A stretch of DNA of 64,000 nucleotides from Candidatus Nitrosocosmicus arcticus (lineage in GTDB: Archaea; Thermoproteota; Nitrososphaeria; Nitrososphaerales; Nitrososphaeraceae): positions 62,001 through 126,000 of the forward strand of contig NZ_ML675582.1 in assembly GCF_007826885.1 (NCBI RefSeq), given 5' to 3'. Numbering within the stretch: the first letter of the stretch is position 1; every line of letters starts with the position of its first letter. The notes beneath the pieces are model-generated. The model made no database searches. It saw nothing but the letters and a program-made list of their open reading frames with translations, and was not told the origin of the DNA. Of the stretch, positions 53,238 to 59,479 are shown piece after piece. A program made the translations under genes and the position numbers.

Positions 53238-54077
53238 TTAGTTTTGTGCTGCTGCATTATTCCCTGAATTCTCTTGGTTTTGTACGTTTACGTTGTTACC
53301 TGATGCTTCTGTATCATCGCCGGATACTACCTGACTACTTTGGTCTGATTCTTGTGATTGGCCGATGCCTTGGTTAGAAGAGTTGCCACCATTATCGTCA
53401 TCATGATTGTTACTCTTTCCCTTATTATCATCATCATCGTCATCGTCGTCATTTCCTCCACTTTGTGCAGCTGCATTATTTCCTGAATTCTCTTGGTTTT
53501 GTACATTTATGTTGTTACCTGATGCTACTGTATCGTCGCCAGAGACTACTCCACTACTTTGACTGGATGATTGTGATTGGCCGATGCCTTGGTTAGCGCT
53601 GTTGCCGCCATTACCTTCATATTCATCACCGTTACCGCCTTGTTGGGCCACTGCATTATTTCCTGAATTCTCTTGGTTTTGTACGTTTACGTTATTACAT
53701 GATAGGAATGTCCCTTCACCAGAAACACATAATGCGCTTTGATCTGAAGATTGTGATTGGCCGATGCCTTGGTTAGCGCTGTTGCCGCCATTACCTTCAT
53801 ACTCGTCATCATTTCCTCCACTTTGTGCAGCTGCATTATTTCCTGAATTCTCTTGGTTTTGTACGCTCAAGTTATTACAGGAAAATAGAGTTCCATCGCC
53901 TGATACACAAATTCCTAATTGAGTGGATGCTTGTGATTGGCCGATGCCTTGATTAACTGAATTGCCTTGTGCAAAAACATTTAGTGTCATTGCAGAAGGT
54001 CCCATCAAAAGTATGAATGAGACTGCGAGTGCGGTTGTCGTAATTATAGCTTTATTTGCAAATGATGTATTATTCAT
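53238..54077 (-). CDS. Secreted protein of four curlin-like tandem repeats
   Basis: This 279-aa protein has a signal peptide (about residues 1-36, ending LNVFAQ). The mature part is four repeats of about 60 residues. Each starts NQGIGQSQ, then has VSGDGT/VSGDDT, NN-x-VQNQENSGNNAAAQ, and a spacer rich in Gly, Asn and Asp. The last spacer includes a run of eight aspartates. The Q-x-Q-x3-G-N-N-A-x2-Q pattern resembles the curlin repeat of functional amyloids (Q-x-G-x2-N-x-A-x3-Q). The first two repeats have a cysteine pair (CVSGDGTLFSC). An extracellular matrix or adhesin role is inference. Confidence 0.82.
   Translation of the reverse strand: MNNTSFANKAIITTTALAVSFILLMGPSAMTLNVFAQGNSVNQGIGQSQASTQLGICVSGDGTLFSCNNLSVQNQENSGNNAAAQSGGNDDEYEGNGGNSANQGIGQSQSSDQSALCVSGEGTFLSCNNVNVQNQENSGNNAVAQQGGNGDEYEGNGGNSANQGIGQSQSSSQSSGVVSGDDTVASGNNINVQNQENSGNNAAAQSGGNDDDDDDDDNKGKSNNHDDDNGGNSSNQGIGQSQESDQSSQVVSGDDTEASGNNVNVQNQENSGNNAAAQN
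53263..53930. repeat. Tandem DNA repeats of about 180 bp encoding the protein repeats
   Basis: The conserved block CCTGAATTCTCTTGGTTTTG begins at 53263, 53482, 53662 and 53842, so spacing is 219, 180 and 180 bp. The longer first interval holds the Asp/Asn/Lys spacer. Identity at DNA level is high, so the array could recombine. Confidence 0.85.
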
Positions 54078-55077: not shown

Positions 55078-55564
55078 TTTGATTATTTCCTATAGCTGCT
55101 TCCGATCAACTTTGCAACGTCATATGTACATGATAGACAGATTCATCGATTTTGGATTTCTCCATCACTAGATCATTTAACAAGAAAAGTAAATCTATAA
55201 GAATTCTTGAGGTAGAGCAATGCCAAGTTCGTGAATAGACTATAGTTGCTAGCGCTTATTCCCATTTGATTCCATCCCAAATATTCCCAGAATTAATTAA
55301 ATCTAGAATCCCTGGAAAATGGTAAAATAAGGTGCGAAGATAGAGATACGCAATAAGGATTGTACATAGTGTTATCAATATTCGGAATTTTAAAAAAAAG
55401 GAACTCTTGATTGTGATTACTTCCAAATGTATAAATACATTAATTATTACTCTGTTCAAGTAGACGTTGAACACCCGAGTTATATGATCACGCCTAAGCT
55501 GTAGTCAAAGTCAAAATGGTAAGACAGATCTATAGTTTAAATAATTATCGTTTCATATATAATT
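55078..55564. other. Intergenic stretch, TATA box of the next gene at its right end
   Basis: A 72-codon minus-strand frame (55256-55474) has one hydrophobic segment but no other support and is not called. Confidence 0.45.
55536..55543 (+). promoter_or_regulatory. TATA box of the first membrane winged-helix gene
   Basis: TTTAAATA is centred 25 nt before the ATG at 55565, consistent with a leaderless mRNA. Confidence 0.55.
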
Positions 55565-56164
55565 ATGTCATCAAATAATAATTTTAACGAAAGTCCAAAT
55601 CATTTCATGGTACTAGATGCGATTTCTCGAGGTATGAAAAAGATAGACGGTATTGCAAAAGTCACAAAGTTGTCAAAAGATGAAGTGGAATTGATTCTAA
55701 ATGATCTAAAAAATCAAAAATTGATAAACACGGTTGTTAAGAAGGGTTTTTTTGGCAATAAGAAAACGGAGTATCATACTTCAGATACGGGTATGAGAAT
55801 GCTGGATTCAAAAAAACAAGAATTATCGTCTAAATCTCAGCGGCTTCAACAACTCTATGATACGGGCAATAGGGGTCAAATGCAGAGTTATATGGACGAT
55901 AACAGAATGTGGATGCCAATGATGCTATTCTCTGGCATTATGAGTATGGTATTTTTTGCTTCAATGATGTCTTTTATGGGAATGGCAATGAATCCAGCTG
56001 AAAGTGCTCAGACTGAAGGGCAAGTAGACGAATCAGGAGGGGCTGGAGCTGAAGATACAGGAGCAGCATCTGATACAGGTGCATCCGACACAGGCGACAC
56101 AGGTGGTGTAAGTGATATGGGCGCAGATAGTGGCATGGATACTGGAGGATTTGATTCATTCTAA
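55565..56164 (+). CDS. Membrane-tethered winged-helix protein with Met-rich segment (paralogue A)
   Basis: This 199-aa protein has three parts. Residues 10-90 form a winged helix (MVLDAISRGMKKIDGIAKVT, KLSKDEVELILNDLKNQKLI, then a basic wing GFFGNKKTEY). Residues 90-142 give a short helix and a hydrophobic segment with 13 methionines in 37 residues (MWMPMMLFSGIMSMVFFASM). Residues 143-199 are a disordered acidic tail of Gly, Asp, Ser, Thr and Ala ending GMDTGGFDSF. It is strongly similar to the gene at 58573. It may be a membrane-bound regulator, with the Met-rich part sensing a metal such as copper (inference). Confidence 0.78.
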   Translation: MSSNNNFNESPNHFMVLDAISRGMKKIDGIAKVTKLSKDEVELILNDLKNQKLINTVVKKGFFGNKKTEYHTSDTGMRMLDSKKQELSSKSQRLQQLYDTGNRGQMQSYMDDNRMWMPMMLFSGIMSMVFFASMMSFMGMAMNPAESAQTEGQVDESGGAGAEDTGAASDTGASDTGDTGGVSDMGADSGMDTGGFDSF

Positions 56165-56552
56165 ACTGAAAATAGTTCGATAACAATTATTTATTTTGGC
56201 TCTAGACAAACCACAAATATGTTTTAAATATCTGGAAAAACTAATATAAAATAACTGATCGTTGCTTTATGTGATCTAAAAAAGTCAATTCTTTCCTTAA
56301 AATTAGATCCATCTTGCTAGAAGTTAAGGATGTATGATTTGCATTACCTGTCATCAAAAGAGAAGAGATTTGAGTATATAATAAATGAATCAACCAGTCA
56401 ATTTGAATCTCACGATAGAGGAAAAATGAGTTAGTTAACTTGATTTTATATTCCCGAAGATATTATATTTCCTGGTATTATTGGAAGTTAAATTATGTCA
56501 CCCCAAAGTTGGAGTGATTACTTTGAGAAAAAGTACAGACGGTTAGTCTGTG
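56165..56552. other. Intergenic stretch, no gene seen
   Basis: It lies between the convergent ends of the winged-helix and cupredoxin-like genes. No strong terminator hairpin is seen. Confidence 0.45.
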
Positions 56553-56999
56553 TTACTTGGTAGTACCACCGCTATTTGTTTGGTTCAGAAAGCCACTATC
56601 ATTATCCTCCAAGTCAGTATCGTTGTTTGGTACTACAGTTATTTGACCACTGATATGACTCCAAGCTGGATCGTAATAGTTGTATACTCCAGCATTACCG
56701 ATGGTTATATTATATGATTCACCGGCACCGAAATAATCTCCATAAAATATGTTTGATGGGCCTTGATCTGGAGTACCAGATACTAATAGATGCGGAGCAG
56801 AGTCATCATTAAGCCAAATAATAGTTGTGCCCTCTGACACCGTTACGTTTGTGGGAGCCATTGGATTTTGGCTATCGTTATTTGGGGCTCCAGGATTTAT
56901 AGTAATTGCAAAATTGCTGTCTTGAGAACTCCACCCTAACCCATAATAATTGAGAATAGGGAGCAAGAATAATATAAATAGCAAAATTATTCTTCTCAT
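56553..56999 (-). CDS. Secreted cupredoxin-like protein without the copper cysteine
   Basis: This 148-aa protein has a signal peptide or anchor (residues 3-18) and a cupredoxin-type beta barrel (PTNVTVSEGTTIIWLNDDSAPH70LLVSG, GVYNYYD110PAWSH115ISGQITV). Type 1 copper needs Cys after the Y-Y-x segment, with His and Met nearby; here Asp110 takes the Cys position and only H70 and H115 remain. It may bind copper differently or not at all. The C-terminus is an Asn/Asp/Ser/Thr tail. Confidence 0.82.
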   Translation of the reverse strand: MRRIILLFILFLLPILNYYGLGWSSQDSNFAITINPGAPNNDSQNPMAPTNVTVSEGTTIIWLNDDSAPHLLVSGTPDQGPSNIFYGDYFGAGESYNITIGNAGVYNYYDPAWSHISGQITVVPNNDTDLEDNDSGFLNQTNSGGTTK

Positions 57000-57536
57000 A
57001 TTTATATTCTGGTAGTTGGCATTCGACTATTTATTGATGATCCTACTTATCGATATAAATATCTTGGAACAAATTTTATCGACATATCAATCCGATGTTA
57101 CCCTTGTTAATATAACTTGTTTTTATGGTATATGATAGTCATTTAACAAGATCAAATGAATGAGTAGTTTGGCGTTACTAATTTTTTAGTGATCCCTTAT
57201 TGATATTTTACACCATGATGTTAAATTACGATTATATGCCTAGAGTAAAAGCAAGGTGTGGAACAGTCATTGTTACCAAGAGTATCAGTTAATTCCTATT
57301 TCCCGTAAGGTGGTTACAAAAATATTCTTGATTTGAATGGCATTGTACCAACTGAGTCTATATCATAGATATATTTTACTTGAATATTTGCATCCAAGAT
57401 TATGATATTTGATCATAAATGAATATATTAGAGTGTTGGATTTAAGAAAATGCTACGTATTTCGCAACTACTTATGTTACCAATTGCGTAGAAATGGTTA
57501 AAAAAATGAGATTTAGAATTATTATGACGTCAGGGC
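57000..57536. other. Intergenic stretch, no gene seen
   Basis: A/T-rich with several short frames, none supported. The promoter of the cupredoxin-like gene is near 57025. Confidence 0.45.
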
Positions 57537-58070
57537 TTATGATATCGAACTAACGGTCTGTTCATATCCATTTGTATATATCTCTATAATATTACCAAAT
57601 GGATCTTCGCAGAATGCTAATTTATATCCCTTATTTGGAACAATTTCCCAGACCTTGCTTCGCTGCTTTCCTCCAGTTTCTGAAATCTTATGGCATAAAT
57701 CCTCGATGTTTGGATCCGTAATGCATATGTGTGTAATTCCTGATTTCCAATACTCAAAGTTCTGTTGACGTCTTTGTGCCTTTGGCTCCAGGTATTCAAT
57801 TATTTCAAATCCTACCTGATTACCCGAACTCATCCAAACCATTCGCATTTTCTCAAGGTATGGGCCATGAATATCTTTCAATGCTATCCCCGCTATAGAA
57901 TCATCCGCCATAAATTTTACCGGTCCTCCCACTACGGTAAATCCTAGTACCTCATTATACCATTTTATTGCTTGGTCTAGATCTGATACGCTAATGGCTA
58001 TGTGATTTAATGTTTTTGGATATACAGGTTGTGATGACGAGGGTTTATTTGTGGTGCTAGAATTACTCAT
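57537..58070 (-). CDS. VOC family protein (glyoxalase/dioxygenase superfamily)
   Basis: This 177-aa protein has two beta-alpha-beta-beta-beta modules of the vicinal oxygen chelate fold. Metal ligands are likely the His in LNHIAISVSDLD, Glu in VGFEIIEY, His in GITHICITD and Glu in NIIEIYTNG, the canonical H-E-H-E set. YNEVLGFTVVGG and DPFGN are typical. Reactions in the family include glyoxalase I, extradiol cleavage and epimerisation; which applies here is unknown. Confidence 0.9.
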   Translation of the reverse strand: MSNSSTTNKPSSSQPVYPKTLNHIAISVSDLDQAIKWYNEVLGFTVVGGPVKFMADDSIAGIALKDIHGPYLEKMRMVWMSSGNQVGFEIIEYLEPKAQRRQQNFEYWKSGITHICITDPNIEDLCHKISETGGKQRSKVWEIVPNKGYKLAFCEDPFGNIIEIYTNGYEQTVSSIS

Positions 58071-58572
58071 ATATTTGATCCTTCATAGTTCATCTCCATT
58101 TTTATTCTTTAACTCTTAAAACATCTGTACATTATCTTATCGAATAAACAAATCTATAACAAGTTAAAATAACATTTAGAAATGATTAGAACCGCAAGGG
58201 ACTTAACAATAAAGGTTCTCCCAGTGAGATTCTATTATCAGTCTAATAAGGAGAGATACAAATATTCATTTGTTTTTTTATTGAGAGTCAATATATGATG
58301 ACATCGGTACTTACATATACTAATAGGAGTAATGGGGTGTTTTTTTTAGAATGTCTGAAATACTGACTTAGTAAAATTCCAATGTACAATTTGACTGACT
58401 CTTGCCAAAGTAACAAAACTAATGTAATACTAAGTATTCATAGATTAAATATTTGAAGTTACTATTATAGATTTTTTAGATCTAATTTTAATAAATGAGT
58501 TAGTTTGTCAATATTTTAGATAAATTATTAGTTATTCAAAACTTATATAATTTCATATTCATACAAATACAT
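58071..58572. other. Intergenic stretch between divergent genes
   Basis: It contains the TATA box at 58543-58550. No gene is seen. Confidence 0.5.
58543..58550 (+). promoter_or_regulatory. TATA box of the second membrane winged-helix gene
   Basis: TTATATAA is centred 26 nt before the ATG at 58573. The two paralogues share promoter geometry but not upstream sequence, so they may respond differently. Confidence 0.6.
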
Positions 58573-59154
58573 ATGTCTTCAGATAACGGATTTAGTCAAA
58601 GTCCAAATCATTTCATGGTGTTGGATGCCATCTCTAGGGGTATGAAGAAAATTGACAGCATTGCAAAGGTCACAAAATTATCTAAAGATGAAGTAGAATT
58701 GATTGTAAATGATTTACAAACTCAAAAACTAATTACTAAAGAGACAAAAAAAGGTTTTTTTGGTAATAAGAAGATTGAAGTTTACTCTACGGAAACAGGA
58801 TTCAAAATATTAGAATCAAAGAAACAAGAACTAGTCAGTAAATCTAAATATCTTCAACAACTCTATGAAACCGGCAATAAGGATCAAATGCAGAGTTATA
58901 TGGACGATAACAGAATGTGGATGCCGATGATGCTAATGTCTGGAATAATGAGCATGGTAATGTTTGGATCTATGATGTCTTTTATGGGAATGGCAATGAA
59001 TCCCGCCGAAAGTGCTCAAAGTGAAGGGCAAGCGGATGATTCAGGAGGGTCGGGTGCTGATGATACAGGAGCGGCATCCGACGCAGGCGATACAGGTGGT
59101 TCTAGCGATATGGATGTAGGTGGAATGGATACTGGGGGCTTTGATTCATTTTAG
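58573..59154 (+). CDS. Membrane-tethered winged-helix protein with Met-rich segment (paralogue B)
   Basis: This 193-aa protein has the same layout as the gene at 55565: winged helix (SPNHFMVLDAISRGMKKI, KLSKDEVELIVNDLQ), Met-rich hydrophobic segment (MWMPMMLMSGIMSMVMFGSM) and an acidic tail ending DVGGMDTGGFDSF. The most conserved block between the two is QMQSYMDDNRMWMPMM to MGMAMNPAESAQ, which points to a function there and not only in the DNA-binding part. The tail is shorter by about six residues. A stem TACCAC/GTGGTA lies just after the stop codon. Confidence 0.78.
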   Translation: MSSDNGFSQSPNHFMVLDAISRGMKKIDSIAKVTKLSKDEVELIVNDLQTQKLITKETKKGFFGNKKIEVYSTETGFKILESKKQELVSKSKYLQQLYETGNKDQMQSYMDDNRMWMPMMLMSGIMSMVMFGSMMSFMGMAMNPAESAQSEGQADDSGGSGADDTGAASDAGDTGGSSDMDVGGMDTGGFDSF

Positions 59155-59263: not shown

Positions 59264-59479
59264 ATGGCCGAATTTAAAAGTATTTCCGAATTAAAGAAAT
59301 TGCTGTCTGAAGATTGCAAAATAGAAAAGGTAGAACCACCTGTGTATGGTTCGGATATAGAGACTACTATAGTAAGGGTATCACTAAAATGTCCAGATGG
59401 TTTAGTTTACACAATCAAAGCATATAAAGAAGAATCGTCTGCTTTAAGAGAATTTATACGGTTAAATAGTAAAGTCTAA
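59264..59479 (+). CDS. Small hypothetical protein
   Basis: This 71-aa protein is not recognised. It is compact, alpha/beta and charged (ISELKKLLSEDCKIEKVE, then IVRVSLKCPDGLVYTIKAY). It has two cysteines. The start is supported by AAGGTGAT about 6 nt upstream and a TATA-like TTTTTATAAATT at 59224-59235. It follows the second winged-helix gene on the same strand. Confidence 0.65.
   Translation: MAEFKSISELKKLLSEDCKIEKVEPPVYGSDIETTIVRVSLKCPDGLVYTIKAYKEESSALREFIRLNSKV

What the first reader, a model, noticed from the sequence alone, without database searches (positions are those of the whole stretch)
55565..59154. Two membrane-tethered winged-helix paralogues with a Met-packed membrane segment
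The genes at 55565 and 58573 encode the same unusual layout: a winged helix, a hydrophobic segment with 13 or more methionines in under 40 residues, and an acidic Gly/Asp tail ending GGFDSF. The Met-rich segment and the NRMWMPMM block are better conserved than the tail, so they are under selection. A cupredoxin-like secreted protein sits between them. Met-rich segments bind Cu(I) in several families, so a membrane-bound copper- or redox-responsive regulator is a possible new system.
Basis: partly seen in the sequence, partly recalled or inferred. Interest (0 to 1): 0.65.

Follow-up and report, generated by a model that had tools for sequence, protein, structure and literature searches.

The report
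Methionine-packed DNA-binding protein of ammonia-oxidising archaea
Nearly all archaea that live by oxidising ammonia carry a small DNA-binding-type protein whose hydrophobic segment is packed with methionine where non-ammonia-oxidising relatives use leucine; the packing is real and conserved, but neither a copper role nor a membrane anchor is proven.

Summary
Both ORFs exist (55565-56164 and 58573-59154, + strand, 79% identical) and a third paralogue lies elsewhere in the genome. They belong to an unannotated family found in most ammonia-oxidising archaea (AOA): 161 of 174 amoA-positive genomes have a hit (about a dozen of these only to a related paralogue), and no clear full-length member turned up in the class outside AOA families. 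Layout: MarR/PadR-like winged helix, long helix, Met-packed hydrophobic element, acidic Gly/Asp tail ending in Phe (85 of 88). The Met packing is under selection: about 10 Met per 29 residues in every AOA family, 1.7 in relatives with Leu at the same sites, 8 at most in 153,785 control windows, and twice the Met retention expected from simulation. The element looks like two short helices with a conserved Ser/Asn/Asp cap, so a single transmembrane anchor is doubtful, although membrane association remains plausible because the second helix is hydrophobic all round. The copper link fails by gene context: the neighbouring "cupredoxin" has no Cys, and only 1 of the other AOA-locus copies has a cupredoxin nearby. 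Best reading: a membrane-associated one-component regulator, signal unknown.

The parts
55536..55543 (+). TATA-like box (TTTAAATA) of copy A, 21-28 nt before the ATG; suggests a leaderless transcript
   Evidence: Read directly; similar TTTAAATA boxes before most Nitrososphaeraceae homologues
55565..56164 (+). Copy A: 199-aa winged-helix / Met-rich / acidic-tail protein
55595..55786 (+). Copy A winged helix (residues 11-74), MarR/PadR-like
   Evidence: Pfam wHTH matches below cut-off; profile and fold matches to MarR/PadR
55787..55900 (+). Copy A long helix and linker (residues 75-112)
   Evidence: AlphaFold2 models of homologues
55901..55993 (+). Copy A Met-packed hydrophobic element (residues 113-143), predicted helix-break-helix
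55994..56161 (+). Copy A acidic Gly/Asp tail ending GGFDSF
58543..58551 (+). TATA-like box (TTATATAAT) of copy B
   Evidence: Read directly
58573..59154 (+). Copy B: 193-aa paralogue (79% identical to A)
58603..58794 (+). Copy B winged helix (residues 11-74)
58795..58908 (+). Copy B long helix and linker (residues 75-112)
   Evidence: H74-100, H103-112
58909..59001 (+). Copy B Met-packed element (residues 113-143); AlphaFold2 helices 114-122 and 128-137
59002..59151 (+). Copy B acidic tail ending GGFDSF (disordered in model, pLDDT under 50)
56553..56999 (-). Secreted cupredoxin-fold protein without cysteine; judged NOT part of the system
   Evidence: PF00127 21.8 bits vs cut-off 21.2; no Cys in the sequence; not between the copies in L119
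57537..58070 (-). VOC/glyoxalase-superfamily protein between the copies; judged not part of the system
   Evidence: PF00903 3.7e-15; absent from between the copies in the L119 tandem locus

Best explanation
The two genes encode paralogous one-component DNA-binding regulators of an AOA-wide family. An N-terminal MarR/PadR-like winged helix (shown by homology and model) binds DNA (inferred) and probably dimerises through the long helix (inferred from the MarR/PadR fold). The following hydrophobic element has been re-packed with methionine in ammonia oxidisers (shown), has lost the charges seen in relatives (shown), and most likely dips into or packs against the membrane as a helical hairpin or marginal transmembrane segment (inferred). 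That would hold the protein at the membrane, where thioether chemistry (oxidation of Met, or Cu(I) binding) or membrane state could change DNA binding (speculative). The flexible acidic tail with its conserved C-terminal Phe is a linear motif for a partner protein, or an acidic lid on the winged helix (inferred).
For: wHTH: Pfam/NCBIfam wHTH models match weakly, none over cut-off; profile match to the Sulfolobus MarR protein 3gfj/2eb7, E 1e-3; fold match to MarR (Z 13.7, 109 residues) and PadR. Met element: 9.5, 10.5 and 10 Met per 29 in the three AOA families analysed, a further Met-rich member in a fourth (L185), 1.7 in relatives outside the family; Met 55.5% of M+L+I+V+F against 6.3% in other hydrophobic windows of AOA loci; LG simulation on the family's own wHTH tree keeps 4.1 Met (max 6.3) against 9.9 observed. 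Membrane: the second helix is charge-free in 86 of 88 AOA members (mean hydrophobicity 0.62, moment 0.14) against 1.8 charges in relatives. Distribution: 161 of 174 amoA-positive genomes have a hit. Tail tip: Phe last in 85 of 88.
Against: AlphaFold2 gives two short helices (114-122, 128-137), not one transmembrane helix, with falling confidence. Hessa-scale sums are +0.5 to +3.3 kcal/mol for the best 19-mer, marginal for insertion, and marine members have Asp in the middle. No DNA target, expression or localisation data. Charged homologous helices in L148 and L137 show the same element can be soluble. Co-occurrence with amoA is confounded by shared ancestry.
Confidence: 0.42

Rival explanations
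1. A soluble MarR/PadR-type dimer: the Met-packed hairpin is the buried dimerisation core, where Met gives plastic packing or an oxidation-sensitive switch; no membrane involved.
For: The fold matches MarR over model residues 1-140, including C-terminal helices; Ser/Asn/Asp at the helix break looks like an N-cap; homologues with a charged second helix look soluble; msrA (methionine sulfoxide reductase) is present in the AOA genomes examined.
Against: In AOA members the second helix is hydrophobic all round, with no polar face, which is hard to bury in a dimer of this size.
Confidence: 0.27
2. A thioether Cu(I) sensor: Met ladders (126/130/134/138/142, i,i+4 spacing) bind Cu(I) in or at the membrane and gate DNA binding for copper homeostasis in copper-dependent AOA.
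For: Met fixed at M120, M134 and M142; i,i+4 Met spacing recalls the MxxxM of CTR1 (own knowledge); essentially AOA-restricted.
Against: No copper gene neighbourhood; no Cys in 81 of 88, and known cytosolic Cu(I) sensors use Cys (own knowledge); positions 117, 119, 128 and 130 exchange Met with Leu/Ile/Thr/Phe; passages shown from the N. viennensis copper-limitation study name other regulators (ArsR, CopT, a two-component pair), only 12 of 20 passages seen and supplements not read (PMC7785015).
Confidence: 0.12
3. A Met-rich hydrophobic docking surface, working like the SRP54 M domain: it binds hydrophobic helices of membrane proteins, and the winged helix serves as a protein or RNA adapter instead of a promoter-binding domain.
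For: Met-rich flexible hydrophobic surfaces are typical of such client binders (own knowledge); flexible acidic tail; conserved tail-tip Phe.
Against: No ribosome, SRP or Sec gene linkage seen among recurrent neighbours; the basic wing (KKGFFGNKK) fits nucleic-acid binding.
Confidence: 0.1
4. Compositional drift: Met is simply tolerated in place of Leu.
For: Some Met positions do exchange with Leu/Ile.
Against: Simulation, control windows and persistence across all AOA families analysed.
Confidence: 0.03

Closest known systems
MarR / PadR winged-helix regulators (E. coli MarR 3voe, Sulfolobus ST1710, PadR proteins)
   Same: Winged helix followed by a long helix and further C-terminal helices; fold match Z 13.7, rmsd 5.4, over 109 residues
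   Different: No Pfam or NCBIfam model over cut-off; Met-packed element and acidic Phe-ended tail are not features of MarR/PadR as I know them
Transmembrane transcription regulators (TTRs), e.g. ArnR/ArnR1 of Sulfolobus acidocaldarius (PMC6396743, PMC10269533)
   Same: N-terminal HTH and C-terminal hydrophobic segment in a one-component protein
   Different: ArnR has a HAMP-like and sensor domain and two transmembrane domains; here there is one marginal segment that is probably helix-break-helix
Met-only Cu(I) proteins (CTR1 MxxxM, CopC/PcoC, CusF)
   Same: Clustered Met with i,i+4 spacing in a hydrophobic element
   Different: No copper genes nearby; no metal-binding data; Met positions are core positions occupied by Leu in relatives
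SRP54 M domain
   Same: Met-rich hydrophobic helices (own knowledge)
   Different: No sequence relation seen; followed by an acidic tail, preceded by a winged helix

Membership tests
MarR/PadR-type winged-helix regulators | Winged-helix DNA-binding-type domain | tested here: met
   Fold matches with Z 11.6-13.7; profile E 1e-3 to a Sulfolobus MarR protein
MarR/PadR-type winged-helix regulators | Curated family model over cut-off | tested here: not met
   No Pfam or NCBIfam model reaches its cut-off, so not filed as a member
MarR/PadR-type winged-helix regulators | Dimeric, binds an operator | not testable with these tools
   Needs biochemistry
Transmembrane transcription regulators | DNA-binding-type domain present | tested here: met
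Transmembrane transcription regulators | At least one transmembrane region | tested here: inconclusive
   Octanol-scale sums favourable, Hessa-scale sums slightly positive, hydropathy borderline, AF2 helix break
Met-only Cu(I) binding proteins | Conserved clustered Met residues | tested here: met
   M120, M134, M142 at 98/95/86%
Met-only Cu(I) binding proteins | Genomic link to copper genes | tested here: not met
   A cupredoxin within 4 genes at two places only among 41 copies, one of them Cys-less
Met-only Cu(I) binding proteins | Binds Cu(I) | not testable with these tools
   Needs titration
Type-1 cupredoxin (protein 56553-56999) | Cys ligand in the C-terminal loop | tested here: not met
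   YNYYDPAWSH in place of the YYC..HP.M seen in L091, L105 and L118

The most novel reading that the evidence does not exclude
An AOA-specific membrane-embedded regulator that senses Cu(I) or oxidants purely through a methionine-packed helical hairpin, a thioether sensor with no Cys or His ligands, fixed at the origin of archaeal ammonia oxidation.
Probability: 0.17. Interest if true: 0.8.

Novelty: new variant of a known kind. Interest (0 to 1): 0.5.

Why it matters
Regulation in ammonia-oxidising archaea is little explored, and this is a small, unannotated protein kept by most of them, often in several copies. Its methionine packing contrasts site by site with leucine in relatives that do not oxidise ammonia, which gives a direct mutational test (Met back to Leu) of what methionine-rich hydrophobic elements do. 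If it is a thioether sensor it would be an unusual mechanism; if not, it still marks a lineage-specific regulator or nucleoid factor of a globally important group.

Tried and rejected
Copper neighbourhood: rejected. My first motif scan was too strict and missed the cupredoxin in L118; redone. AMO subunit identity: rejected, AmoY/AmoZ are 9.6 and 12.8 kDa helical proteins (PMC10030591). Named family: no Pfam or NCBIfam model over cut-off. Conserved neighbours around the non-AOA relatives: none that recur across lineages. Literature: no paper found combining AOA, Met-rich and copper, nor winged helix with Met-rich and Thaumarchaeota, nor for guessed N. maritimus locus tags. Two tree scripts failed on thread settings; one family scan failed on a mistyped reference.

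Full report
WHAT IS THERE. Two ATG-started ORFs on the + strand, 55565-56164 (199 aa, copy A) and 58573-59154 (193 aa, copy B), are 79% identical. Both end GGFDSF, both contain 20 Met, and their best 39-residue windows hold 13 and 15 Met. TATA-like boxes lie 20-30 nt before each ATG, so each looks separately transcribed and leaderless. A third copy at 49% identity sits on another contig.

FAMILY AND DISTRIBUTION. No Pfam or NCBIfam model reaches its cut-off. A search of 250 genomes of the class gives hits in 176; archaeal AmoA gives 174. Compared by hand, 161 of 174 amoA-positive genomes have a hit. Of the 15 hits in amoA-negative genomes, 14 are in AOA families f1/f2, and the last (G016) is marginal (E 8e-4) and covers only the winged helix in the profile re-search. 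About a dozen of the 161 hits have weak E-values (roughly 1e-3 to 1e-11); where examined, such hits were a different paralogue with the same winged helix but an N-terminal ordinary hydrophobic anchor, so roughly 150 of 174 have the Met-rich protein itself. A profile re-search of 12 of the 13 amoA-positive genomes without a hit recovers only winged-helix matches in other proteins; in the non-AOA families of the order it finds nothing (f4, f7, f8) or winged-helix-only matches (f6). Family f5, also amoA-positive, has a Met-rich member too (L185 1465-1971). Because AOA share one ancestor, this co-occurrence is not independent evidence for a role in ammonia oxidation.

DISTANT RELATIVES CHANGE THE PICTURE. 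A profile of 45 sequences finds relatives in other Thermoproteota. They share the layout winged helix, long helix, LPxxLxxGLLDxxLY-type hydrophobic element and, often, an acidic tail ending in Phe or Leu. Aligned over the same 29 columns, AOA families average 9.5 (52 sequences), 10.5 (34) and 10 (2) Met; 22 relatives outside the family (18 non-AOA, 4 AOA paralogues) average 1.7, with Leu or Ile the usual residue at those sites. Met outside the element is 3.8-5.3% against 2.1%, so this is not proteome-wide. The acidic tail and its Phe/Leu tip are therefore probably older than the Met packing.

IS THE MET PACKING SELECTED? In 153,785 windows of 29 residues from 694 unrelated proteins of the AOA loci, the maximum is 8 Met, reached in one protein; Met makes up 55.5% of M+L+I+V+F in the family element against 6.3% in other hydrophobic windows. 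Simulating the consensus element under LG+G on the tree of the family's own winged-helix region leaves 4.1 Met per sequence (largest of 200 replicates 6.3) against 9.9 observed; Met retention 35% expected, 73% observed; for L/I/V/F the figures are 54% and 69%. M120, M134 and M142 are Met in 98, 95 and 86%. Others (117, 119, 128, 130) exchange with Leu, Ile, Thr or Phe. The simulation assumes the rate of the winged-helix region, so part of the excess reflects general constraint; the comparison with L/I/V/F columns shows the excess is larger for Met.

IS IT A MEMBRANE SEGMENT? Not shown. AlphaFold2 models of copy B and of a Nitrosotalea-type homologue (mean pLDDT 73 and 77) both give two short helices with a break, then a disordered tail. 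The residue after the break is Ser, Asn or Asp in all 88 AOA members and most often Asp in relatives, as expected of a helix N-cap. In L148 and L137 the second helix is amphipathic and charged. Best 19-mers score -7 to -13 on the Wimley-White octanol scale (favourable) but +0.5 to +3.3 on the Hessa scale (marginal). Yet in AOA members the second helix has no charge in 86 of 88 and a low hydrophobic moment, which fits membrane burial or a large hydrophobic assembly better than a soluble amphipathic helix. I therefore read it as probably membrane-associated, topology open.

COPPER? The neighbour 56553-56999 is a cupredoxin-fold protein by PF00127 but has no cysteine; its loop reads YNYYDPAWSH where true type-1 sites in L091, L105 and L118 read YYC..HP.M. 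In the tandem locus of another Nitrosocosmicus (L119) neither it nor the VOC/glyoxalase gene lies between the copies. Among 41 family copies in AOA loci, a cupredoxin lies within four genes at two places only: this Cys-less one (next to both window copies) and one intact (L118). Instead, in Nitrosopumilaceae the gene lies directly before birA (biotin protein ligase) in 15 of 18 loci and within five genes in three more; this is not seen in Nitrososphaeraceae. There is no Cys in 81 of 88 members.

MECHANISM. Shown: winged-helix homology and fold, Met packing under selection, loss of charge in the second helix, conserved tail tip. Inferred: DNA binding, dimerisation, membrane association, partner docking by the tail. 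Speculative: what is sensed. Known membrane-bound archaeal regulators ArnR/ArnR1 have an HTH, HAMP-like and sensor domains and two transmembrane domains (PMC6396743), and transmembrane regulators are widespread in archaea (PMC10269533), so a membrane-held regulator would not be a new kind; the Met-packed element would be a new variant.

VERDICT. Observation confirmed; interpretation partly supported; best filed as an unnamed AOA-wide winged-helix family with a Met-repacked hydrophobic element.

Noticed in passing
L127, L129, L130, L131 and similar loci (Nitrosopumilaceae): A second family with the same winged helix at the C-terminus and an ordinary Leu/Ile-rich hydrophobic anchor at the N-terminus, i.e. 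the reverse order and without Met packing; a natural control for the Met-rich form.
   Followed up: partly
L090-L108 (Nitrosopumilaceae loci): The Met-rich gene is directly followed by birA on the same strand in 15 of 18 loci, suggesting co-transcription with biotin protein ligase.
   Followed up: partly
Nitrosopumilus-type genomes such as G044, G048, G007, G022, G042, G060: msrA (methionine sulfoxide reductase) lies about 5-10 kb from the Met-rich gene in some 15 of 24 AOA genomes searched; probably one inherited arrangement, but a lead for a Met-oxidation link.
   Followed up: no
window 53238-54077 (-): Secreted protein of NQGIGQSQ...CVSGDGT...NVQNQENSGNNAAAQ repeats, curlin-like in look; relatives lie near family copies in L117, L118 and L119.
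   Followed up: no
L136, L149: AOA paralogues with the winged helix and hairpin followed by a CxxC...CxxC zinc-ribbon-like domain.
   Followed up: no
G187, G222, G242 and other Nitrosocosmicus genomes: The family is expanded in this genus, with up to 6 matches per genome, against 1-2 in most other AOA.
   Followed up: no
window 59264-59479 (+): A 71-aa ORF follows copy B and is conserved behind the tandem pair in L119 together with the next gene; no Pfam match over cut-off.
   Followed up: no
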